A DNA stretch of 36,849 nucleotides, from positions 1 through 36,849 of the forward strand of contig NZ_DAHXOI010000004.1 in assembly GCF_027364955.1 (NCBI RefSeq), read 5' to 3'. Below, one piece after another: positions 16,504-31,990 of this stretch. Each line of letters opens with the position of its first letter. Position 1 is the stretch's first letter. Origin of the DNA: Ferrimicrobium sp. (GTDB taxonomy: Bacteria > Actinomycetota > Acidimicrobiia > Acidimicrobiales > Acidimicrobiaceae). A model generated the notes under the pieces. It saw nothing but the letters and a program-made list of their open reading frames with translations. It did no database searches and was not told the origin of the DNA. The position numbers and the translations under genes were made by a program.

Positions 16504-17211
16504 ATGAGAGCTGTGGTGCGGGGAGTAGCCGTTTCGACGGTGGCGGGGTTGGTCGCAGTCTTGGGAATGACACCGGCTGCATGGGCCAGTGGTAGCCCTA
16601 CTCCAAGCAGTCCTTCAGCTCCGGCTCCCATTGCTGGTTTCCAAACCACCGTTCTGAGCCAAAGCGTTGCTCCTTCGTCGAAGACGCAAACGTTTCATGC
16701 AACCTCCAACGTTTCGAACGTAACCATCTCCGTACCCCCAGGTGCCTTCGGGAACGTAGTCGTCCAACTCGTGGTGACCGAGCCCACCCTCTCCTCTCTC
16801 ACCTCTTCCCTCGCGAGCCTAGGGCTCTTTGGGGACACCGTTGGAGCTGGTGTTGGTGTTGAAGTGCTCGACAGTGCCACCGGGCAGGCGCTCTCTGGCA
16901 CGTTCGCGTCAGGCGTGACGGTCACTATTCAGTCGAGTTCGATTACATCAAAGTCCAAGGTGATTGAGTATCCTGTTGTCGGGAATCCTTACATTGTTAA
17001 TAATGCGACGGCAACGAACGGTCAGGCGGTCATCACCGTCACCAGCGACCCGGGCCTTGCGGTGGCAACACCGGCGTCTTCCTCTTCAGTGGTTCCAGGA
17101 GCCACCTCTCCCGTAACGGGAAAGAATTTCCTTCCCGAGGCTGCTGGTGCCGGACTGCTTCTCGTTTTTGGCGGTTCGCTCATGGTTGCATCAAGGCGCC
17201 GACAGGCTTGA
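16504..17211 (+). CDS. Secreted Ser/Thr-rich surface protein with LPxTG-like (LPEAA) sorting tail
   Basis: I do not recognise the central domain. The 235-residue protein has a signal peptide (MRAVVRGVAVSTVAGLVAVLG...), with likely cleavage after Ala28 (AWA-SG). A Ser/Pro/Thr-rich segment (about 29-65) and a compact beta-rich region follow, with the motif ISVPPGAFGNVVVQLVV. The tail carries LPEAA at 210-214, a hydrophobic stretch (LLLVFGGSLMVA) and RRRQA. This is the layout of a sortase sorting signal, but with Ala where LPxTG has Thr-Gly. The start ATG at 16504 has AGGAGG seven bases upstream. It overlaps the next gene as TTGA and heads a four-gene overlapping unit; a sortase gene lies 6.4 kb downstream. 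Sortase anchoring is inferred. Confidence 0.78.
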   Translation: MRAVVRGVAVSTVAGLVAVLGMTPAAWASGSPTPSSPSAPAPIAGFQTTVLSQSVAPSSKTQTFHATSNVSNVTISVPPGAFGNVVVQLVVTEPTLSSLTSSLASLGLFGDTVGAGVGVEVLDSATGQALSGTFASGVTVTIQSSSITSKSKVIEYPVVGNPYIVNNATATNGQAVITVTSDPGLAVATPASSSSVVPGATSPVTGKNFLPEAAGAGLLLVFGGSLMVASRRRQA

Positions 17212-18107
17212 GGTTTAAGTTTTACCAGATCGGAGTGCTGGCGCTGGGCCTTGGCGCGCTACTTGGTGCCTGTGGTGCTGCGACAGCATCTACTGCCCAC
17301 AAGAGTCCTGCGTCTGGTTCAACCCACCAGCGTCCCAGTGAGATTATTCCAGTCTCTTCGGATGCCCTGGCGATGGGGCCATTGCAATCGAATGGTACCA
17401 TTGCGGTGCTTGCTGGGACGGACCATTCGAAGGGGGTGTTCCTTTACGATATCGCTGATCAACAAGAGATTGGGAGCTTTTCTGTTTCGAATCTTGCACA
17501 GTCGATCACTCAGCTGCCCAATGGTGATATCGCGGTTGGCTTTGGGGGCAGCTCGGTAGGAGCGGTGCAACTGTACGCCGAGAGCGGCCGTGAGTTTGCC
17601 TCCGTTCCTGTCGCGGAACCGGTGCTATCGTTGAGCGTGGGTAGCGATGGAGGATCCATTCTCGTCCTCGAGGGTACCAGCCGTGCCCGTGCCGTTGCCC
17701 TCTTAGACGTTGCAACCCGTGAGGCCTCCTCAACTATCCCGGTAGCGTTACAGACCGTTGCGATTGCATCGTCGTTGCAAACCCCGAATGAGTTGTATGG
17801 GCTGGAATCACAGGGGGTCGTGGCTGTGTACACCACGACAACCGGTCAGGAGATTGGAGATTTCATCGTGGGACACTCAGGCCGTGCCCTGGCTATGGGA
17901 CCTGGTGGAAACCATCTCTTTGTACTAAAGGGTTCTGCTCAAATTCGCAATGTGGCTGTCGTGGACCTGGCGACTGAACGCGACGTTCGCGTGCTGCCAG
18001 CACCAAAGGGTGCAGTTGCCATTCAGACTGACCTTACCAGTCAACATCTGATTGAACTCGCGAGCTTGCCAAATGCGGCCAATATTCAGGTGGCGTCGAC
18101 GTCGTGA
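17208..18107 (+). CDS. Predicted lipoprotein, beta-propeller-like
   Basis: A 299-residue exported protein. A signal peptide (FYQIGVLALGLGALLGAC) ends in a lipobox LLGAC with the lipidated Cys at residue 22, then a Ser/Ala/Thr linker. The rest reads as repeated strands of the kind seen in YVTN/WD-type propellers: GTIAVLAGTDHSKGVFLYDI, then GDIAVGFGG...GAVQLYAESG, then ILVLEGTSRARAVALLDVAT, then LFVLKGSAQIRNVAVVDLAT. No catalytic residues are evident. TTG start, overlapping the upstream gene as TTGA; the stop overlaps the next gene as GTGA. It may sit on the outer face of the membrane as an accessory of the envelope system; the function is unknown. Confidence 0.75.
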   Translation: MRFKFYQIGVLALGLGALLGACGAATASTAHKSPASGSTHQRPSEIIPVSSDALAMGPLQSNGTIAVLAGTDHSKGVFLYDIADQQEIGSFSVSNLAQSITQLPNGDIAVGFGGSSVGAVQLYAESGREFASVPVAEPVLSLSVGSDGGSILVLEGTSRARAVALLDVATREASSTIPVALQTVAIASSLQTPNELYGLESQGVVAVYTTTTGQEIGDFIVGHSGRALAMGPGGNHLFVLKGSAQIRNVAVVDLATERDVRVLPAPKGAVAIQTDLTSQHLIELASLPNAANIQVASTS

Positions 18108-20179
18108 AAACCCTCGATGTACTTCCTGCGCGTGAAGTGGCCGAGAAGCGATCAGAGGAGATAAGTCCCAGTCTGGGGGTTGCGGGTGTCGCTCAGGGTG
18201 CGGGTCCCTGGATGCTGGTCGGTGCGGTTCTCGTCCTCTGGGGGCTTCGTTTTGGGTTAGGCGTCGGTGAGGGTGTGTGGTTCAGCGTAGCTGATGTGGG
18301 TGCGGTGGCATCGGGTCTTGGCATCGCTGTTGCATCTCCGTGGCTAGCAAGTTCGCCAAGGGCGCGATTTGTTCACTACGTGATCTTGGCGGTTGTCCTT
18401 GGAGCGTTCGTCGCCTGGGCTTGGCAGCAGATCTTGTTGGCTCCCGCCTACGCGACGGATGAACTCGCATTTGACCAGTATGCAGCCCATCTCCTGTTGC
18501 ATGGAGTCGATCCCTATCGAGCGTCTCTTGCTAACGCCTTTCCTCGCTATCAGGTATCACCAGATGCCTATACCCTGCGTTTCAATGGATCGCCAGTCAC
18601 CAGCCTGTCCTACCCTGCGCTCTCATTCCTTGTCTACGTACCGATGCTGTTGGCCGGGATCCACATGCAGGCGGGGGAGATCGTAGACATTACCGCGTGG
18701 GCTATAACGATTTTGCTCACCTGGGTCACGGTCCGCAACGACTGGCGACCACTGGTCCTTGTCTTAGTAAGTCTCTCTGCCTATATTGCCTATGCGGTTG
18801 GCGGAGTGACAGATGCGCTTTATGTTCCGCTCTTGGTTGGAGTGGCTGCGTCAATGCCCCACTATTTGCGCCGTAGTCGATGGGGCTGGATCGCACCGCT
18901 GCTTCTCGGTACTGCGATGGCGATCAAGCAGACGCCTTGGTTGATCGCTCCGTTTCTCGCTGAAGTCGTGCTCCTTGTCGTTGCTGACAGGGAGGGGTGG
19001 AGGGCTGCGTGGACTCGGTTGGGACTCTTTGTGACGATCGCTGCGTCCGCGTTCATGGTCTGGCAGGTTCCCTTTGTCCTATGGGCTCCACACGCTTGGC
19101 TCGCAGGGGTCCTCACTCCCTTTGATTCCTCCGTGGTGCCGGCGGGTCAGGGACTAATAGCGCTCACCCTGGCGTTTGGAGTTGGCGGCGGCGGCTTCTC
19201 CTGGTTGACGCTTTTATCCATCGTCTATATGGCTGGAGGCCTTGTCATTCTTTGGTTTGCCTGGCCCCAACATGGTTGGTTGGCGTTTGCGTTACCAGTC
19301 TTGGCCCTCTTTTTTGCGACCCGCTCCTTTGGTTCGTACTTCGTCAACCTTATTCCCGCGGCGTTGGTGGCGCTAGGGAGCTGGCCTCGGAGTCGTGTCG
19401 AACTATCGAGACGCCCATTATTGATTACCCTTGCGGCGTTGGGGACGATCACGCTGGGGGCTCTTGTACTCTGGGTAGCCTCCCCTCCACCACTCAGGGT
19501 TCGCATTGTTGGCGTTCATACCTCTGGCCAACTCGCCACGATTGACCGGGTGACTTTGGCGGTTGCAAATTCGTCGAACCACCCGATCACACCTAACTAC
19601 GTGGCCGAATTGGCAGGCTCCTTTAGTTCGCCCTGGGTGCGGTTGTCAGGACCGACGATTATTCCTGCGCACTCCAGCAAAACCGTCGTCGTCGGCGCAC
19701 CGAATTTTCCTGCTCAGCCATCTGTAGCCGGTGGTTTTCAGATGGTGTCCTTTGCAAAGAACTTCGTTGCCCCGTCTGCCCTCTACGAGCCAGGTTTGCT
19801 ACACGTGGTCCTCGTTCCGGATGCACTTAACCACCCGATTTCGTTTGGCAAGACCGTTACCCTGGATGCGGAGTTGGTCAATCGACTCGATGAACGCGTT
19901 CGCGAGGCTGGCGTTCCTGTCTATCTCGGCCAGGCGGTCTATGCCCAGCGAGGTCTACTGTACGGGAGTGCCGCCATCAATCGTTCTGCTCCCGGAGCCA
20001 CTCCGGTGGAGGAGTTGACCGGACCCGGGGGAGTAGCAGTTTTTCGCATCGTTGATCATGGGTCACAACCAGACCCGATCAGCTTTGAGGCAAACCTCGT
20101 GTCGACCCAGGGCTTCTACCCCTACGGCTATTCCCAAATCGTGCCAATTCGCTTTGTCCAGAGGAGAAGTGAACGATGA
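18104..20179 (+). CDS. GT-C-fold-like integral membrane glycosyltransferase candidate
   Basis: A 691-residue protein with about 11-12 predicted membrane segments (residues ~35-460) and a C-terminal extracytoplasmic domain of about 210 residues rich in beta strands (RVRIVGVHTSGQLATIDRV ... PVYLGQAVYAQRG). The first large loop has ATDELAFDQYAAHLLLHGVDPY, with acidic residues where GT-C enzymes keep their catalytic Asp/Glu. AIKQTPWLIAPF and TDALYVPLLVG also resemble GT87/DUF2029-type polyprenyl-phosphate-sugar glycosyltransferases. It probably transfers a lipid-linked sugar outside the membrane; acceptor and sugar are unknown. GTG start, overlapping neighbours by 4 bases on both sides. The family call is by pattern only. 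Confidence 0.7.
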   Translation: MKTLDVLPAREVAEKRSEEISPSLGVAGVAQGAGPWMLVGAVLVLWGLRFGLGVGEGVWFSVADVGAVASGLGIAVASPWLASSPRARFVHYVILAVVLGAFVAWAWQQILLAPAYATDELAFDQYAAHLLLHGVDPYRASLANAFPRYQVSPDAYTLRFNGSPVTSLSYPALSFLVYVPMLLAGIHMQAGEIVDITAWAITILLTWVTVRNDWRPLVLVLVSLSAYIAYAVGGVTDALYVPLLVGVAASMPHYLRRSRWGWIAPLLLGTAMAIKQTPWLIAPFLAEVVLLVVADREGWRAAWTRLGLFVTIAASAFMVWQVPFVLWAPHAWLAGVLTPFDSSVVPAGQGLIALTLAFGVGGGGFSWLTLLSIVYMAGGLVILWFAWPQHGWLAFALPVLALFFATRSFGSYFVNLIPAALVALGSWPRSRVELSRRPLLITLAALGTITLGALVLWVASPPPLRVRIVGVHTSGQLATIDRVTLAVANSSNHPITPNYVAELAGSFSSPWVRLSGPTIIPAHSSKTVVVGAPNFPAQPSVAGGFQMVSFAKNFVAPSALYEPGLLHVVLVPDALNHPISFGKTVTLDAELVNRLDERVREAGVPVYLGQAVYAQRGLLYGSAAINRSAPGATPVEELTGPGGVAVFRIVDHGSQPDPISFEANLVSTQGFYPYGYSQIVPIRFVQRRSER

Positions 20180-22233
20180 CTACCGTCATCAGCGAGGCAC
20201 CACCGATACGCTCTCTTGTAGGATTGCGCAATCGTGGGGCTCGCTTGGTGCGACGACTGGGGGCGCTCGATGGGGTGGTCAAGGTCGCCTGGGGACTTGG
20301 TCTCCTTCAGTTTGTGATCCTCTGCGTTGAGGAGCTGCGGATCGTTGAGGGAGGAGCGTTGAGTTGGGACTATTCCGTCGACGCAAGTGCCTATAGTGCC
20401 ATCGCCCGTGGTGATCTAAATCCTCATTATTTCGTTGGTATTGCATACTCTCCTTTCATGAGGAATCACTATGATCTCCTCACCTGGCCGTTGGCGCTGC
20501 TGCTCGTCGGTCTGCTTCATCTTCCTGTGAAGATCACGTTGTTGATTCTTCTCCAGGCCTTGCCCCTGGCCCTCATTGGTCCGATCGTGGCCACTTATGC
20601 CTGGGTGCGAGGGCGAGAGCGTGGTATCTCAGGCGCGCGCCTTGAGGTGCTCACCCTCGTACCAGCGCTCCTCGGTCTCATCGACATCTGGCTCTACTGG
20701 TCGGCAAGTTTTGACTATCACGATAAGGCCCTCCAAGGATGTCTGTTGGTATTGGCGGCGATCGCCCTCGAGCGACGTCGCACCCTCTGGCTGGTCGTTC
20801 TGGTTACCCTCTTGCTGCTAACTGGCGATACCGGTGGATTGGTGGTGGTGGGGCTTGGGATCGCTGCGCTGTTACGACGACGCTGGCAGGTTGGTGCCGT
20901 CATTATCGTCGCCGGTGGACTCGTCCTAGTGGCACCCGGGAGTATTCTTCCACCGGATGCTTGGGGTGGTGCAGCGGTGCTTTATGGGGCGTTGGCGCCA
21001 GGGCATCATCACTTAGCTGGCATCGCGATCGGGGTTCTGCATCACCCAGCCAGAGCGCTCGATCGCCTATTCAGATCGCTTCCCGACGTCTGGGCCCTGA
21101 TCGGGGCCGCCGGGGTGCTCGGGGTCTTCAGCGCTGAAGGAGTAGGGCAGATGGCATTAGTAGGGTTGGCCGCTTGGCTGACGCCAGTGCAATTCGCGTA
21201 CGCAGGCAACTTTCAGACTGTTCCTGTGAGCGACGCGCTGTTGCTCGGTTCGGTTGGCGTATTACTGTGGCTCTACGGTCCCCGTCACCGACGAGCGGTT
21301 GGGTTAACTGTAGGAATAGCCAGTGTCGTGTGGTCCACCGGTTGGGTGGTGGTCTTTGCCCCACGTCTGGTGGGGAACGTAGTGGGGATCGCCCCCTCTG
21401 CTCAGGCGGGAGCTTCGCTGGCTACGATCGAGGCGGAGATACCCGTTCGCCAAGAGGTCGTTGCTCCGAACGGGATTATCGGTGACTTTGCTACTCGACA
21501 CCAACAATTTCAGCCTCTTAAGTGCAGGTCAAGCACCATTGTTCCAACGCATGGAATTCCGTTAAACGTTGTTGTCGCGCCTGAAGTTGGTGCAGAGTAC
21601 TGTGGTCCAGGTGTGCTGCTCTCGGAAGTCTCAATGGTGGCGCAGCTTCCTGGTGCCCGATTGCAGGTGTTTTCGGGCCCTGTCTACTGGGTTCGTTGGA
21701 ACCCGGGCCCAGGATCGCGCGACGTGCAACTCACACCTGGGGCGACCGGTGTCTGTGGCTCACTCGCTCACAGTCTCACTAGCCGTTCGCCGCTGCATGG
21801 AACGTATGAAGGTTGTGCCGAGTCTTTTCACGGGCCTGGGTTTGCCCTCCAGGATTTTACCGTGGCCTTTCCTCCGAGGACACGCGATGAGGCGATTGTG
21901 TCGCTCTCAGTCTCAGGGCAGGCTTCGCTGCAGGTTTGGGATGATCCGGCCGGTGCCCTTGTCGCTCAGCGCTTCCTCAGCTCCGCGTCGACGGAGCTCA
22001 TCACGATGCCGTTTGTGACTCCGCGTTTGACGCCGCCATCAGCGGCGTTCTCCGATGGCATATTTCCGTTCCAGACCCGATTTGTACCCCCGATTCCCGA
22101 AGATGCCTTCGAGTTGCGAGTCTTTGTGCCCAAGGGTTCCGCCGTCACTCTCGACGGGGTCTGGATGGGGAGTGGCCGAGAGGGTGTGGCGGTTCTGCGA
22201 TCGGCTTTGTTCGCTGGAATTGGCCAGGGCTAA
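20176..22233 (+). CDS. DUF2079-like multi-spanning membrane protein with extracytoplasmic domain
   Basis: A 685-residue protein with about 11 membrane segments in residues ~35-420 and a soluble, beta-rich C-terminal part (~430-685) that should face outside. The early region (DYSVDASAYSAIARGDLNP ... NHYDLLTWPLALLLVGLLHLP ... LLILLQALPLALIGPIVATY) follows the DUF2079 pattern: an acidic first loop, His/Asp near a substrate loop, then an LLxLQA helix. That family is related to GT-C glycosyltransferases. Three Cys in the C-terminal domain (CRSS, YCGPG, VCGS), plus YEGCAE, may form disulfides. It overlaps the previous gene as ATGA, so the pair probably acts together. The enzymatic role is inferred. 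Confidence 0.68.
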   Translation: MTTVISEAPPIRSLVGLRNRGARLVRRLGALDGVVKVAWGLGLLQFVILCVEELRIVEGGALSWDYSVDASAYSAIARGDLNPHYFVGIAYSPFMRNHYDLLTWPLALLLVGLLHLPVKITLLILLQALPLALIGPIVATYAWVRGRERGISGARLEVLTLVPALLGLIDIWLYWSASFDYHDKALQGCLLVLAAIALERRRTLWLVVLVTLLLLTGDTGGLVVVGLGIAALLRRRWQVGAVIIVAGGLVLVAPGSILPPDAWGGAAVLYGALAPGHHHLAGIAIGVLHHPARALDRLFRSLPDVWALIGAAGVLGVFSAEGVGQMALVGLAAWLTPVQFAYAGNFQTVPVSDALLLGSVGVLLWLYGPRHRRAVGLTVGIASVVWSTGWVVVFAPRLVGNVVGIAPSAQAGASLATIEAEIPVRQEVVAPNGIIGDFATRHQQFQPLKCRSSTIVPTHGIPLNVVVAPEVGAEYCGPGVLLSEVSMVAQLPGARLQVFSGPVYWVRWNPGPGSRDVQLTPGATGVCGSLAHSLTSRSPLHGTYEGCAESFHGPGFALQDFTVAFPPRTRDEAIVSLSVSGQASLQVWDDPAGALVAQRFLSSASTELITMPFVTPRLTPPSAAFSDGIFPFQTRFVPPIPEDAFELRVFVPKGSAVTLDGVWMGSGREGVAVLRSALFAGIGQG

Positions 22234-22302
22234 GGATTCACCGTTCTGGTCTTGGTCATTTAGGTCGAAAAGAGGAAAGGATTAGCGTGATGGGGATAGA
22301 TC

Positions 22303-23253
22303 ATGTTAGGGGGGGGTCAACGAGTAGTCGTGGTGGTTCCTGCCTACAGCGCAGAGCGGAACATTGAGGCCACTAGTGCCGAGATTGACTTTGGTGTTGT
22401 GGACCGGGTCATTGTGGTCGATGATGCGAGTCATGATCATACGCTCCAAAGAGCAAAGAGTTGTAATGCGTTGGTCGTTGCCCATAAAATGAATCAAGGT
22501 TATGGTGCCAATCAGCGGACCTGTTATGGGCTTGCGCTAGATGATCATGCAGATATTGTTGTCATGGTGCTTGGGGATTATCAGTATTCACCCCGCTTGA
22601 TTCCGTCGCTTGCTGGTCTCATCGCATCGGGCCACTACGACATGGCACTTGGATCACGATTTCTTGGTAATGGTGCCCGGGAAGGTGGGATGCCTTGGTG
22701 GCGGTACCTGGCTAATCGCGTTCTCACAGCTTTTGAGAATGCTGTGGTGGGACAGAAATTATCTGAGTATCACACAGGCTTGCGCGCCTTCTCGCGAGAT
22801 CTGCTTGTGTCGATGCCCTTCCATCAGTTCTCCAATGATTTCGTCTTTGATAGCGAGGCGTTGGCCTATGCGGTTGCCAGTGGTGCACGCATTGGAGAGG
22901 TTTCCTGTCCAACTCGTTATTCGCCGGACTCGTCCTCGATCAGCTTTCGACGGTCGATCCGTTATGGTCTTGGAGTGGTGCGCACGTCGCTAGCATGTCG
23001 ACGATCTTTCGATGGCCACGGCCGAGGAATTTTTACCGGGGTAACCAAGTCAGTCCATGGTGAGCGGGGCTCTCTTTCACCGGTGGCGAAAACTGTTGAG
23101 TTCCATGCTCCACGACCAATGTCCCAGTCACTTCTTGAGGTGGGTTCGGCGGGAGACGGTGATCGAATAGCCGGACTGATAGCTGATCCACCCGCACTGG
23201 TGGGCACGCCTCATGGCGAGGAGGCTCGGATGCCTTCGACTCAAGCCGTCTGA
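22303..23253 (+). CDS. GT2 glycosyltransferase, polyprenyl-phosphate sugar synthase-like
   Basis: A 316-residue soluble GT-A enzyme of family GT2. The start VVVVVPAYSAERNIE is followed by VIVVDDASHDHT (nucleotide binding), NQGYGANQRTCYGLAL, VVMVLGDYQYSPRLIPSL (DxD-region equivalent), GSRFLGNGAREGG and EYHTGLRAFSRD. This pattern fits Dpm1/UDP-glucose dolichyl-phosphate synthases, so it could load a sugar onto polyprenyl phosphate for the two upstream membrane proteins. There are no membrane helices; the last ~80 residues look disordered. ATG at 22303 is poorly spaced from a purine-rich tract, whereas an out-of-frame ATG at 22290 has a better site (AGGAAAGG, 22273-22280). A run of eight G follows at 22309-22316, so the start is uncertain. 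Confidence 0.82.
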   Translation: MLGGGQRVVVVVPAYSAERNIEATSAEIDFGVVDRVIVVDDASHDHTLQRAKSCNALVVAHKMNQGYGANQRTCYGLALDDHADIVVMVLGDYQYSPRLIPSLAGLIASGHYDMALGSRFLGNGAREGGMPWWRYLANRVLTAFENAVVGQKLSEYHTGLRAFSRDLLVSMPFHQFSNDFVFDSEALAYAVASGARIGEVSCPTRYSPDSSSISFRRSIRYGLGVVRTSLACRRSFDGHGRGIFTGVTKSVHGERGSLSPVAKTVEFHAPRPMSQSLLEVGSAGDGDRIAGLIADPPALVGTPHGEEARMPSTQAV

Positions 23254-23592
23254 TGGTTGCTTTGACGACGCGAAGGGGTGGATCGAAGTAGCTCTAGTTG
23301 CGACTGATATTTCCCTTGGTTGGTGGGAGACGAGTACGAAGTTGATCGATCTTTCCGGAGCGGCTTTCCGGTCGGTAGAGAAGTGGGGTCGGCTCGCATG
23401 CGAAAAGCCGATTGATGTGATTCGTGATACGCGCGGTTGCCTGCTCAATCGGGGGTCCGGGTCGGTAGGAGCGACGTGTATGAAGGTCGAGTCCTGGATT
23501 GACCTCAATGTTTGCGCTGTTCCCGCCGACACAATGGAGAGGAGCGATTGTCGAACGGTGTTTATCTTGATGTGTAATCAACGGCGTTGGTG
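23254..23592. other. 339-bp region between the GT2 and sortase genes
   Basis: Frames are open on both strands (for example 23213-23593 on plus and 23128-23532 on minus) but none shows recognisable sequence. The plus frame has poor codon choice compared with its neighbours and overlaps the GT2 end. A short inverted repeat, TCGGCT...AGCCGA, surrounds an inner CGCATGCG palindrome near 23392-23414. It may hold the sortase promoter. Confidence 0.4.
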
Positions 23593-24651
23593 ATGCTTCG
23601 GTTGCGAGGACGCCACAGCAGGACTGGCCGTGGTCTAAAGTTGCTCTTTGGAATTGGCGCGCTCTGTGTGGCGTTGGGATTGCTTCTCGTCGGCAGGATT
23701 GGGCTGTTCTATGCTCGATCATCGATTGTTGGCGGGGAGAAAATCAGAGCGGTTGTCGATGCCCGACAAGGAAAGCCATGGCCCACCGGGGTGATTGCGT
23801 TGCTCCGGATTCCCGGGATCAGCCTGGTTGCACCGGTGGAGCAGGGAGTTGGCGATAACGTCTTGAATGTTGCGGTTGGACATCTCCCCTCCAGTGTGAT
23901 GCCCGGTGTGGCAGGAACGTCAATCATCGCCGCTCATAACGTGAGTTGGTTCTCTGGTCTCGGAGGTCTGCGACGCGGGAGTCTTGTTGAGGTTGATACT
24001 CCGACACAACAGCAGGTCTATCGAGTGGACTGGCACAAAGTTGTCCATACAGGTTCGCCAGTGGTCGATACTGCAACGCCTAGTGTCGTTCTTGAGGCAT
24101 GCTGGCCACTCAATGCTCTGTACCTCACGTCATATCGATACCTCGTGGGTGCAACACTGGTGGCATCGTCAGCCGTTGACAATGTTCCGAGGATCCCGAG
24201 GGAGGATCACTTTCGGCCCATTGGCATTCCCCCGCCAATTGCGAGCGAGAACCTTAACCTCGATGCCAACAATCTCCCGATGGGTTCTTTCGTTATCACC
24301 GGTGAACCATCCGCGTCATGGTCGGGATCCAGCGCCCCTTACTCGTTGGCTAGTGCTGAGGTGAACTGGTTAATCGCGTTGTTGCACGCAGCGAGTGCTC
24401 AAAGTGTTTCCCAGCTCGTTGCGGTGAGTCATGACTCACCGCGTGAAGTTACTCCGTTACTCCATGGTTATCAAGGATTTGATTCACTTGCGAACTTGTC
24501 AGAAACAATCGATGGTCGACATGCTATCGCTGGAACTGCCGCAGTCAATCTCAAGACGGCGGCTGGACAAGTGCAGGTGGTTCAACATTTTGTTATTCGT
24601 GCGCTCAAGGTGCGGTTGAATGCGACGTCGATCACGCAAGTAGTCAATTGA
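23593..24651 (+). CDS. Sortase family transpeptidase with extra C-terminal domain
   Basis: Predicted membrane-anchored cysteine transpeptidase that cleaves LPxTG-like signals and joins surface proteins to the cell wall or to each other. The N-terminal membrane segment is at about residues 17-40. The catalytic domain has IPGISLVAPVEQG, AVGHLPSSVMPGVAGTS, IIAAHNVSWFSGLG with His115, VVLEACWPL with Cys170, and YLTSYRYLV with Arg182, giving the His-Cys-Arg set. The order and PG-GTS motif resemble class D/E sortases. Unusually, about 160 residues follow the catalytic Arg; most such sortases stop soon after it. ATG at 23593 is chosen; in-frame TTG 23587 and GTG 23590 are alternatives. Its likely substrate is the LPEAA-tailed protein at 16504-17211 (inference). 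Confidence 0.85.
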   Translation: MLRLRGRHSRTGRGLKLLFGIGALCVALGLLLVGRIGLFYARSSIVGGEKIRAVVDARQGKPWPTGVIALLRIPGISLVAPVEQGVGDNVLNVAVGHLPSSVMPGVAGTSIIAAHNVSWFSGLGGLRRGSLVEVDTPTQQQVYRVDWHKVVHTGSPVVDTATPSVVLEACWPLNALYLTSYRYLVGATLVASSAVDNVPRIPREDHFRPIGIPPPIASENLNLDANNLPMGSFVITGEPSASWSGSSAPYSLASAEVNWLIALLHAASAQSVSQLVAVSHDSPREVTPLLHGYQGFDSLANLSETIDGRHAIAGTAAVNLKTAAGQVQVVQHFVIRALKVRLNATSITQVVN

Positions 24652-27211: not shown

Positions 27212-28432
27212 ATGACTCATAAGCGCATACCTACACTCTTGCTCGCGATTGTGGCTGGTGTTGGGGTGGCGAATACCTACTATCTGCAGCCATTGCTGCA
27301 TATCGTGTCAGTCGCGCTCCATCTCTCCGGCGGTAACGCGGGCTTTTTGATCACCGTCACACAGGCCGGCTTCGTCGTCGGTCTCGGCGTCTTGCTTCCG
27401 CTTGGCGATCGCTTCGACCGGCGGTTCTTAATCGTGTTGTCACTGTTGTTGGCTGGCCTCTTCGATGTCGGTGCGGGACTCGTCACCGGTACGATCCCTT
27501 TGGGTGTGTCACTGATAGGGGTTGGCATCTTCTCGGTCGTCGCTCAGCTGGCCGTCACCTACGTGGCGGCGGCAGCCCCGCCGGAGGTGCGATCCTCTGA
27601 GATTGCAAAAGTGATGGCTGGGTTGTTGGCGGGCATCGTGCTCGCGCGCACCTATTCGGGGGCGCTCGCTGATCTCGCTGGTTACCACAGCGTCTTTCTT
27701 GTCGCGGCCCTCGCTTCGGCCATTCTCGCACTCATTGTCTGGCTACGCCTTCCAGCAGAGGCAGACAAACATGCAATTGCCTTTGTTGACATGTGGCGTG
27801 ATGGTTTCCGTCTCTTGCAGAGGGAGCCGATCCTGCGTCTTCGCTCCTTCCTTGGGATGTTGAGTTTTGGCGCGTTTTCGATCTTCTGGACGACGATGGC
27901 CTTTGCGTTGTCAGCGCATCCCTATCACCTCAGTTCGGGCCTGATCGGGCTCTTTGGCTTCGCCGGGTTGGCAGGTGTGCTTTCAGCTCGTGTCGTCGGT
28001 GCCTTAGCGGATAGGGGACATACTGCATTCACGACGGTCGTCTCCTTTTCGCTCATTGCATTGTCGTACTTTGCCTTCTTCCTGACACACGATTCGATCG
28101 TGCTGTTCATCGTCTTGACGGCAACCCTTGACGCTGGCATCCAGGGTGCACAGCTGTCGAATCAGAGTCTGATCTATCAGCTCGCACCAGGAGCGCAAGG
28201 GCGCATCACGATGGTGTACATGGTCTTCTATTTCCTAGGCGGCGTGCTCGGCTCCAGTCTTGCCTCAATACTTTATGGGATCGGCGGTTGGGCAGATGTC
28301 ACGATCGCTGGTACCATTGCTGGCGTGCTGGGCCTCGTGGTGTGGGGTGTGTTGGCGCTTCGCGAGCGCCGATGGATCCAAGCGATCGATCATGTGGATG
28401 TAACGAGTGGGATGGAGCGACAGAGTGAGTGA
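27212..28432 (+). CDS. Major facilitator superfamily transporter
   Basis: A 406-residue integral membrane protein with 12 predicted helices. The first helix has ANTYYLQPLL, typical of one MFS drug/arabinose-efflux-like group, and the loop 2-3 region GVLLPLGDRFDRRFLIV matches MFS motif A (GxxxDRxxRR). AGYHSVFLVAALASAIL resembles helix 6 motifs of the same group. The substrate is unknown; a proton-coupled efflux function is the family norm. It is transcribed divergently from ppa and overlaps the RDD gene by 8 bases, so the two membrane proteins are likely co-expressed. Confidence 0.9.
   Translation: MTHKRIPTLLLAIVAGVGVANTYYLQPLLHIVSVALHLSGGNAGFLITVTQAGFVVGLGVLLPLGDRFDRRFLIVLSLLLAGLFDVGAGLVTGTIPLGVSLIGVGIFSVVAQLAVTYVAAAAPPEVRSSEIAKVMAGLLAGIVLARTYSGALADLAGYHSVFLVAALASAILALIVWLRLPAEADKHAIAFVDMWRDGFRLLQREPILRLRSFLGMLSFGAFSIFWTTMAFALSAHPYHLSSGLIGLFGFAGLAGVLSARVVGALADRGHTAFTTVVSFSLIALSYFAFFLTHDSIVLFIVLTATLDAGIQGAQLSNQSLIYQLAPGAQGRITMVYMVFYFLGGVLGSSLASILYGIGGWADVTIAGTIAGVLGLVVWGVLALRERRWIQAIDHVDVTSGMERQSE

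Positions 28433-31640: not shown

Positions 31641-31659
<19 letters not shown>
30949..31659 (+). CDS. Coiled-coil protein with C4 zinc ribbon (DUF164 family)
   Basis: A 236-residue protein. Residues 1-165 form a long Glu/Leu/Ala-rich antiparallel coiled coil (QLETELQRTGSALEA ... VAELELKRASYATLLDDQERL). The C-terminal zinc ribbon has GGYCGNCHMALSS and PPCEECGALLV, four Cys in two CxxC pairs. The family (Rv2229c/CT398-like) is widespread but poorly characterised; proposed roles involve nucleic-acid or secretion complexes. No Shine-Dalgarno sequence lies in the usual window before ATG 30949. The last six codons overlap the 3' end of the convergent rnpB gene, so the C-terminal residues EDEGDL are co-constrained with the RNase P P1 stem. 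Confidence 0.87.

Positions 31660-31990
<331 letters not shown>

What the first reader, a model, noticed from the sequence alone, without database searches (positions are those of the whole stretch)
16504..24651. Candidate glycosylate-and-anchor surface system: LPEAA protein, lipoprotein, two GT-C-like proteins, GT2 and sortase
Four genes (16504-22233) overlap by 4 bases each and encode a secreted Ser/Thr-rich protein with a sorting-like tail, a lipoprotein and two multi-spanning membrane proteins with large extracytoplasmic domains. A Dpm1-like GT2 and a sortase follow. The GT2 could charge polyprenyl phosphate, the GT-C-like proteins could transfer the sugar outside, and the sortase could anchor the acceptor. 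I know of no described system with exactly this set; novelty is not proven.
Basis: partly seen in the sequence, partly recalled or inferred. Interest (0 to 1): 0.75.

Follow-up and report, generated by a model that had tools for sequence, protein, structure and literature searches.

The report
Sortase-linked surface glycosylation gene cluster
A conserved set of genes, shared by many acid-loving bacteria, appears to build a sugar structure outside the cell membrane and to fasten a small partner protein to the cell wall; no description of it was found in the papers searched, and the sugar and its target are still unknown.

Summary
In detail: six same-strand genes lie at 16504-24651, the first four overlapping by 4 bases. 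The reading is partly supported, with corrections.

(1) The sorting motif is not LPEAA, which varies; it is the SPVTGK just upstream, whose T-G is invariant in 11 of 11 aligned homologues.

(2) Both membrane proteins look like GT-C. The model of the fourth matches Pmt4, PglB and ArnT and ends in a carbohydrate-binding-like domain. The third relates to GT87 by profile (E 1e-8) and ends in Ig-like domains.

(3) The set is conserved: all six (of 42) family genomes with the lipoprotein have the unit. Full-type third proteins occur in 54 loci, 49 with other cluster genes, including Conexibacter, Sulfobacillus and Alicyclobacillus.

(4) The sortase is optional and tied to the tail: 20 of 27 tailed versus 0 of 13 tailless clusters carry it; 6 of 7 independent contrasts agree, 1 tie.

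(5) GT2 is often not linked; flippase-like genes accompany it in some lineages.

Against the acceptor idea: tailless partner proteins are Ser/Thr-poor (14.5% versus 27.5%) though the GT-Cs mostly remain. Best reading: a polyprenyl-phosphate-sugar-dependent GT-C module coupled to a wall-anchored partner; the acceptor is undecided.

The parts
16504..17211 (+). P1: small secreted protein, signal peptide ending AWA (by eye), tail GATSPVTGK + hydrophobic stretch + RRRQA
   Evidence: no Pfam family at E up to 1
17098..17208 (+). C-terminal sorting region of P1 (residues 199-235; S-P-V-T-G-K at 202-207)
   Evidence: T201, T205, G206 invariant in 11 of 11; consensus PGATSPVTGKPFLxEG; LPEAA itself not conserved
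17208..18107 (+). P2: lipoprotein with a propeller-like repeat domain
   Evidence: Lipobox by a loose pattern in 39 of 45 homologues; weak WD40/propeller hits in relatives
18104..20179 (+). P3: GT-C-like multi-spanning protein (GT87-related, invariant Asp119 in YxTDE) with two C-terminal Ig-like domains (about residues 462-690)
   Evidence: hhalign to ten GT87 proteins prob 95.6, E 1.1e-8; model pLDDT 83.9; Ig-like matches
20176..22233 (+). P4: DUF2079 GT-C protein with C-terminal carbohydrate-binding-like beta-sandwich (about residues 538-668)
   Evidence: Pfam; model pLDDT 72.4 versus Pmt4 Z 19.3, PglB 17.0, ArnT 16.7; CBM 8xmz Z 11.4
22303..23253 (+). P5: GT2, polyprenyl-phosphate sugar synthase-like
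   Evidence: Pfam 48.8 bits; best NCBIfam PpgS 55.3 and AglJ 55.4 bits, both far below equivalog cut-offs
23587..24651 (+). P6: sortase with His117, Cys172, Arg184 and a C-terminal extension of about 150 residues
   Evidence: Pfam 60.1 bits; these residues invariant in 10 of 10; 40 distinct PDB sequences matched at E up to 0.01, nearly all named sortase

Best explanation
This is a conserved cell-surface module. Proposed course: P5 (GT2) loads a sugar on polyprenyl phosphate; the carrier is flipped (no flippase gene was recognised in the cluster here; relatives carry GtrA- or EamA/SMR-type genes beside the GT2); two GT-C proteins, P3 (GT87-like with Ig-like domains) and P4 (DUF2079 with a CBM-like domain), transfer sugar outside the membrane, assisted by the membrane-anchored propeller-like protein P2; the small secreted partner P1 is cleaved between T and G of SPVTGK and joined to peptidoglycan by the dedicated sortase P6. 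Shown here: gene conservation, domain relationships, the sorting signal and its co-variation with the sortase. Inferred: enzymatic activity, flipping, sugar identity, the cleavage itself, and whether P1 carries the glycan (about 0.35) or only holds or organises it at the wall (about 0.35). The first two rivals below are these two sub-cases.
For: Family: P2 in 6 of 42 genomes, and those six have P1-P2-P3-P4-P6 in one block. Wider: of 54 non-redundant loci with full-type P3, P1 in 40, P2 in 40, P4 in 38, sortase in 20, close GT2 in 11; any GT2 within 6 kb in 20 of 54. The search models were built from some of these loci, which match by construction. Tail versus sortase: 20 of 27 against 0 of 13; with adequate flanks 13 of 14 against 0 of 10; 7 independent contrasts, 6 same way, 0 opposite, 1 without difference, sign test p 0.031. 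P4 fold: 38 of the 50 listed matches (ranks 1-32 and 34-39, judged by entry titles; rank 29 is a GPI-transamidase chain) are GT-C enzymes or GT-C-like subunits. P3: GT87 profile match E 1.1e-8; controls 0.81, 0.057, 0.31 and 0.0011 for P4 against the same GT87 set. The Pfam GT87 model also reaches the P3 orthologue in G030 at E 3.8e-4, below cut-off. Flippase-like genes: GtrA beside GT2 (L072), GT2-GtrA fusion (L108), EamA in L083 and L122, with the EamA relative in five loci L081-L084 and L122.
Against: No activity, glycan or anchoring has been measured. No GT2 was found within 6 kb of P3 in 34 of 54 loci (some contigs are cut). Five P3 loci have no other cluster gene in the held flanks. Ser/Thr content of P1 falls from 27.5% (32 tailed) to 14.5% (15 tailless), although P4 stays in 10 of the 13 tailless clusters; this speaks against P1 as a general O-glycosylation acceptor. 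The TM part of the P3 model was not tested by fold search because Ig domains filled the list. A second, four-protein GT87-like set gave weaker support (prob 76.6; 72.8). P3 and P4 profiles show no relation to each other (E 0.035).
Confidence: 0.65

Rival explanations
1. Sub-case A: the GT-C pair builds a cell-wall or surface polysaccharide, as Emb/Aft enzymes do, and P1 is a wall-anchored accessory or glycan-binding protein, not the acceptor.
For: P4 has a CBM-like domain and lists AftB, AftA, Emb and AftD entries among its fold matches; tailless P1 are Ser/Thr-poor while GT-Cs mostly persist; one tailless P1 analogue has a PG_binding_1 domain (30.9 bits, cut-off 23) and another an OmpA hit below cut-off.
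Against: P1 stays beside P3 in eight loci where neither P2 nor P4 was found (some contigs are cut), so P1 seems closer to the reaction than an accessory would be.
Confidence: 0.35
2. Sub-case B: P1 is O-glycosylated by P3/P4 and then anchored.
For: Tailed P1 are Ser/Thr-rich (27.5%); P4's best fold match is the protein O-mannosyltransferase Pmt4, Z 19.3, 300 residues, 4.3 A; loci with only P1, P3 and P6 exist (5 of 54).
Against: Ser/Thr-richness follows the tail, not the GT-C genes; fold resemblance within GT-C does not tell the acceptor.
Confidence: 0.35
3. The genes are neighbours by chance or shared regulation only.
For: Homologues of DUF2079, sortase and GT2 do occur alone in family genomes.
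Against: Orthologues keep order across genera and in Bacillota records, and the tail follows the sortase.
Confidence: 0.03
4. LPEAA is the sorting motif.
For: It sits before the hydrophobic stretch.
Against: Not conserved: LSEG, LPVG, LPEG, IPEG, LAEG, LGES in homologues, while T-G upstream is invariant in 11 of 11.
Confidence: 0.02

Closest known systems
Actinomyces oris LcpA-GspA-sortase (PMC6381275, abstract and outline seen)
   Same: An actinobacterial wall-anchored protein that is glycosylated by an extracytoplasmic enzyme.
   Different: The transferase is an LCP phosphotransferase there; here two GT-C-like proteins, a propeller-like lipoprotein and a GT2 lie in one cluster with their own sortase.
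PEP-CTERM/EpsH exosortase system (PMC1569441, passages seen)
   Same: A C-terminal sorting tail and its presumed processing enzyme tied to glycosyltransferase-rich loci.
   Different: EpsH is not a sortase homologue; here a true sortase and a TG-type tail.
Mycobacterial Emb/Aft arabinosyltransferases (mechanism recalled; PDB titles)
   Same: GT-C enzymes with extracytoplasmic beta-sandwich/CBM domains using polyprenyl-phosphate sugar.
   Different: No PDB sequence matched the P3 or P4 profile at E up to 1; sugar unknown; sortase partner.
Pmt/PglB/ArnT GT-C enzymes (PDB titles)
   Same: Fold of P4's membrane part.
   Different: Acceptor unknown; 10-12% identity in those rows.
GT87 and DUF2079 Pfam families
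   Same: P4 meets DUF2079; P3 is profile-related to GT87.
   Different: P3 carries Ig-like domains and is not hit by GT87 at cut-off.

Membership tests
Sortase (C60, Pfam PF04203) | Score over family cut-off and His-Cys-Arg triad | tested here: met
   60.1 bits versus 26.6; H117, C172, R184 invariant in 10 of 10; their role as triad is by position and recall
Class D sortase (NCBIfam NF033746/NF058671) | Curated subfamily score | tested here: not met
   52.3 versus 165 and 57.2 versus 140 bits; classes C, E, F and GN also below cut-off
LPXTG-type sortase substrate | Signal peptide, xxxTG motif, hydrophobic stretch, basic end | tested here: met
   by alignment and pattern; signal peptide read by eye
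LPXTG-type sortase substrate | Leucine at the first motif position | tested here: not met
   S 18, T 11, A 2, R 1 of 32 tails at that position
LAVTG tail domain NF058582 | Score over cut-off | tested here: not met
   20.7 versus 27 bits, match at residues 213-233 only
DUF2079 (P4) | Score over cut-off | tested here: met
   33 versus 28.2 bits; 9 of 12 members match at E up to 1
GT-C fold (P4) | Structural match of the membrane domain to GT-C enzymes | tested here: met
   Z 19.3, 300 residues, 4.3 A (Pmt4); model pLDDT 72.4
GT87 (P3) | Score over Pfam cut-off | tested here: not met
   No GT87 hit in 17 members; 20.4 bits versus 25 in the G030 orthologue
GT-C fold (P3) | Structural match of the membrane domain to GT-C enzymes | tested here: inconclusive
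   Fold lists filled by Ig-like domains; profile relation to GT87 E 1.1e-8
Polyprenyl-phosphate GalNAc synthase PpgS (P5) | Equivalog score | tested here: not met
   55.3 versus 370 bits; general GT2 met, 48.8 versus 23.3
LcpA-type protein glycosylation | LCP phosphotransferase paired with the sortase substrate | not tested
   The six cluster proteins carry no LCP hit; the rest of the genome was not searched for LCP

The most novel reading that the evidence does not exclude
An undescribed surface system of acidophilic Actinobacteria, Sulfobacillus and Alicyclobacillus in which a glycan made by a paired GT-C machine is carried by a small partner protein, and that protein, not an LCP phosphodiester link, ties the glycan to peptidoglycan; the anchoring part is exchangeable (dedicated TG-specific sortase, peptidoglycan-binding domain, basic tail or none).
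Probability: 0.25. Interest if true: 0.8.

Novelty: new variant of a known kind. Interest (0 to 1): 0.62.

Why it matters
If right, it links two textbook processes, GT-C glycosylation and sortase anchoring, in one dedicated and widespread cluster, gives a working hypothesis for a DUF2079 protein, names a dedicated sortase with a non-leucine TG motif, and offers a possible basis for surface properties of bioleaching acidophiles. Sulfobacillus thermotolerans Kr1 carries it by record title, and so does a genome whose length equals that of the Acidimicrobium ferrooxidans type strain, so it is testable in isolates.

Tried and rejected
LPEAA as motif: rejected by alignment. First named-genome scan with the P3 protein alone found nothing; a six-sequence profile then found 49 loci. 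PDB sequence search: no match at E up to 1 for P3 or P4 and one weak nucleoporin match for P1, E 0.087, taken as chance. Fold search of the P3 model: no GT-C chain among the 50 rows shown in either list, which does not exclude the fold. Profile comparisons without a convincing match: P3 versus PIG-V-like E 0.81, P4 versus P3 0.035, P4 versus the four GT87-like proteins 0.051, GT87 versus PIG-V-like 0.057, GT87 versus the window's transporter at 27212-28432 0.31; GT87 versus P4 gave prob 20.3, E 0.0011 over 55 columns, so values near 1e-3 should not be trusted here. NCBIfam on the P3 membrane part: no family better than E 0.038. Promoter and terminator scans: no clear excess over shuffles (5 versus mean 3.9; 9 versus mean 11.0). 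Ser/Thr-richness as support for P1 as acceptor: rejected as general evidence. Literature, PMC open library only: sortase+glycosyltransferase+Acidimicrobium 0, DUF2079 0, sortase+GT-C+polyprenyl 0, a five-term glycosylation/LPXTG query 0; Acidimicrobium ferrooxidans+sortase 2 and Sulfobacillus+sortase 3 papers, judged unrelated from the listing alone; one search listed 5, of which I saw passages of one; one search listed 5, of which I saw the abstract and outline of one; one search matched 324 papers, 15 listed, none opened. Subscription journals are not covered.

Rows dropped before the 54-locus count: L079, L080, L101, L110, L118, L121, L123, L124 as second copies of contigs already held or of split genomes; L016-L021, L077, L078 (no P3); L048, L051, L052, L074, L075, L076 (split pieces of G320, G426 and G299, three genomes not counted at all); L125, L126 (truncated P3); L053-L061, L073, L127 (short-type P3, E not below 1e-180). 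The short search loci L001-L009, L022-L041 and L062-L071 were not scanned. The tail was recognised by a pattern that itself demands TG, so the 32 of 32 with TG is by construction; the independent count is the 11 of 11. In L046 the P6 hit lies on an over-long ORF, so its printed order is not reliable. In the tree I set tail = 0 by hand for L042, L043, L045, whose P1 analogues were read but are not hit by the P1 model; of 54 rows 43 had a tail state and 34 bore both traits. The tree is the quick method and the long branch L049 is unsure. For the GT87 set I used ten of the fifteen loci (L128, L136, L140-L142 left out).
Full report
What is there. I call them P1 (16504-17211), P2 (17208-18107), P3 (18104-20179), P4 (20176-22233), P5 (22303-23253) and P6 (23587-24651). 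Pfam recognises P4 (DUF2079), P5 (GT2) and P6 (sortase); P1-P3 have no Pfam match at E up to 1.

Conservation in the family. Among 42 genomes of the window's family, matches at E <= 0.001 were found for P1 in 10, P2 in 6, P3 in 7, P4 in 18, P5 in 41 and P6 in 26. The six genomes with P2 (G000, G019, G018, G001, G021, G030) all hold P1-P2-P3-P4-P6 in one block. The GT2 is in the block only in G000, G019 and G018. G025 has only P1, P3 and P6, near a contig start. G001 is one contig of 2,158,157 bases, the genome length printed for the type strain of Acidimicrobium ferrooxidans in PMC3035218 (passages seen); the identification rests on length alone. Within the window's own genus 3 of 7 genomes have the block, so it is sporadic. 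Weaker P4, P5 and P6 matches lie elsewhere as paralogues, for example the second sortase of the window genome (C35), which has a different substrate-like neighbour.

Wider distribution. P3 matches occur in 26 of 395 genomes of the class (this includes shorter relatives) and in 20 of 396 of the phylum, 14 of those 20 only at E 5.6e-9 or weaker. A scan of named genomes gave 49 loci, with titles including Sulfobacillus thermotolerans Kr1, Alicyclobacillus sp. ALC3, Conexibacter sp. DBS9H8, Solirubrobacterales, Acidimicrobiales and Bacillota MAGs. After removing duplicates, 54 loci carry full-type P3: P1 in 40, P2 in 40, P4 in 38, P6 in 20 and the close GT2 in 11. The models were built from part of these loci. 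Any GT2 within 6 kb is found in 20. The commonest order is P1 P2 P3 P4 (12 loci); five loci hold only P1, P3 and P6; five show P3 alone. Many contigs are cut, so absences are upper bounds. In the P3 tree (quick method) eight Bacillota records, Sulfobacillus among them, form one supported clade among actinobacterial ones, with Alicyclobacillus elsewhere; this fits transfer, though the root is not inferred.

The sorting signal. LPEAA is not conserved; GAT(S/T)PVTGK before it is. T201, T205 and G206 are invariant in 11 of 11 aligned homologues. Among 32 tails found by a pattern that requires TG, K follows in 24 and P precedes T by two in 18; the first motif position is S 18, T 11, A 2, R 1, never L. 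The tail goes with the sortase: 20 of 27 tailed P1 clusters have P6 near, 0 of 13 tailless do (Fisher p 1.3e-5); where flanks reach at least 3.5 kb left and 5.5 kb right it is 13 of 14 against 0 of 10, p 5.6e-6. These tests ignore relatedness; with relatedness, 7 independent contrasts give 6 same way, 0 opposite and 1 without difference, p 0.031. A sortase elsewhere in a genome would not be seen. Tailless P1 end in various ways: PG_binding_1 in L043 over cut-off, an OmpA hit below cut-off in L045, Thr/Lys-rich or basic ends in some, and plain ends in others.

The enzymes. P4's model (pLDDT 72.4) matches GT-C enzymes over residues 31-404 or more: Pmt4 Z 19.3, rmsd 4.3, 300 aligned; PglB Z 17.0, 4.9, 403; ArnT Z 16.7, 5.1, 391; AftB Z 12.9, 4.8, 371. 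Residues 538-668 match a carbohydrate-binding module, 8xmz Z 11.4, 2.9, 105. Asp65, His98, Asp180 and His182 are invariant in 12 of 12. P3 was harder: its fold lists show only the two C-terminal Ig-like domains (InvE Z 10.7, rmsd 10.2, 189 aligned; one domain against 5dmy Z 10.2, 2.5, 99). Its membrane profile matches ten GT87 proteins with E 1.1e-8 and probability 95.6 over 271 columns. Controls with the same GT87 set gave 0.057 (PIG-V-like), 0.31 (a transporter) and 0.0011 (P4). Against four GT87-like neighbours of short P3 relatives it gave probability 76.6 and E 2.1e-5. The Pfam GT87 model reaches the P3 orthologue of G030 at E 3.8e-4, 20.4 bits, below its 25-bit cut-off. Thr118-Asp119 is invariant in 17 of 17, in a place where GT-C enzymes keep their catalytic acid (recalled). 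P5 is nearest to PpgS and AglJ but below their cut-offs.

The flippase. None was recognised in the window cluster, but relatives have candidates: EamA-type genes between P3 and the GT2 in L081-L084 and L122 (three of the five built the model, the other two match at E 7e-58 and 3e-55), confirmed by Pfam in the two tested (L083, L122), GtrA beside the GT2 in L072, and a GT2-GtrA fusion in L108. A polyprenyl-phosphate-sugar pathway needs such a step; this was not part of the first finding. Their role as flippases is inferred.

How it most likely works. Charging of polyprenyl phosphate (P5), flipping, transfer outside by P3 and P4, help from P2, and anchoring of P1 by P6. The first four are inferred from families; anchoring is inferred from motif and co-variation. 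The acceptor is open. Tailed P1 have 27.5% Ser/Thr in the 150 residues before the tail region (32 proteins), tailless 14.5% in their last 150 (15 proteins), Mann-Whitney p 4e-8 without correction for kinship. P4 stays in 10 of the 13 tailless clusters, so O-glycosylation of P1 is unlikely to be the general purpose; it may still occur in the tailed group, or the glycan may be a wall polymer.

Known or new. The parts are known kinds. The nearest case I found of a glycosylated wall-anchored protein uses an LCP enzyme (PMC6381275, abstract). The searches named in Tried and rejected found no description of this cluster and no paper naming DUF2079; the library lacks most subscription journals. I file it as a new variant of a known kind.

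Noticed in passing
G000:C35 (L020:4705-6926), L017:6727-11738, L078:2-7663: A second sortase in the window genome and in relatives lies near large secreted proteins with a different tail (EPW or TGEP followed by WW), so sortases of this family may be paired with their own substrates.
   Followed up: partly
16504-17211 and homologues: The mature N-terminus of P1 is strikingly conserved (AAGSGYxP... up to PGGF) in tailed and tailless forms, 27 of 48 by a strict pattern, while the rest diverges; the window's own copy lacks the Tyr. Purpose unknown.
   Followed up: partly
L100:6300-6932 and L094:1-336: P1 in two related MAGs stops exactly after PVPVTG with no hydrophobic tail: a sorting motif left without its membrane part, and no sortase near.
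   Followed up: partly
L056, L057, L058, L061: Shorter P3 relatives lie beside other multi-spanning proteins; in L057, the one scanned, these are GT87-like (24.5 bits, just under cut-off) and PIG-V-like (35.7 bits): a different context without P1.
   Followed up: partly
L115:6400-7950, L119:6324-7796: P3 without P1, P2 or P4 has directly upstream a protein starting with a WYDEAYT- or WYDESYT-like stretch, perhaps another GT-C (by eye only).
   Followed up: no
L050 (G316:C39): One cluster holds two P2 genes, a GT2 at one end and the sortase reversed at the other.
   Followed up: no
L014:2785-4371 (-) in G030: A 528-residue membrane protein with a PMT hit just below cut-off (19.7 versus 22.7 bits) follows the sortase: a possible third GT-C in that cluster.
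   Followed up: partly
31641-31986 (-): Bacterial RNase P RNA class A, 266.9 bits.
   Followed up: no
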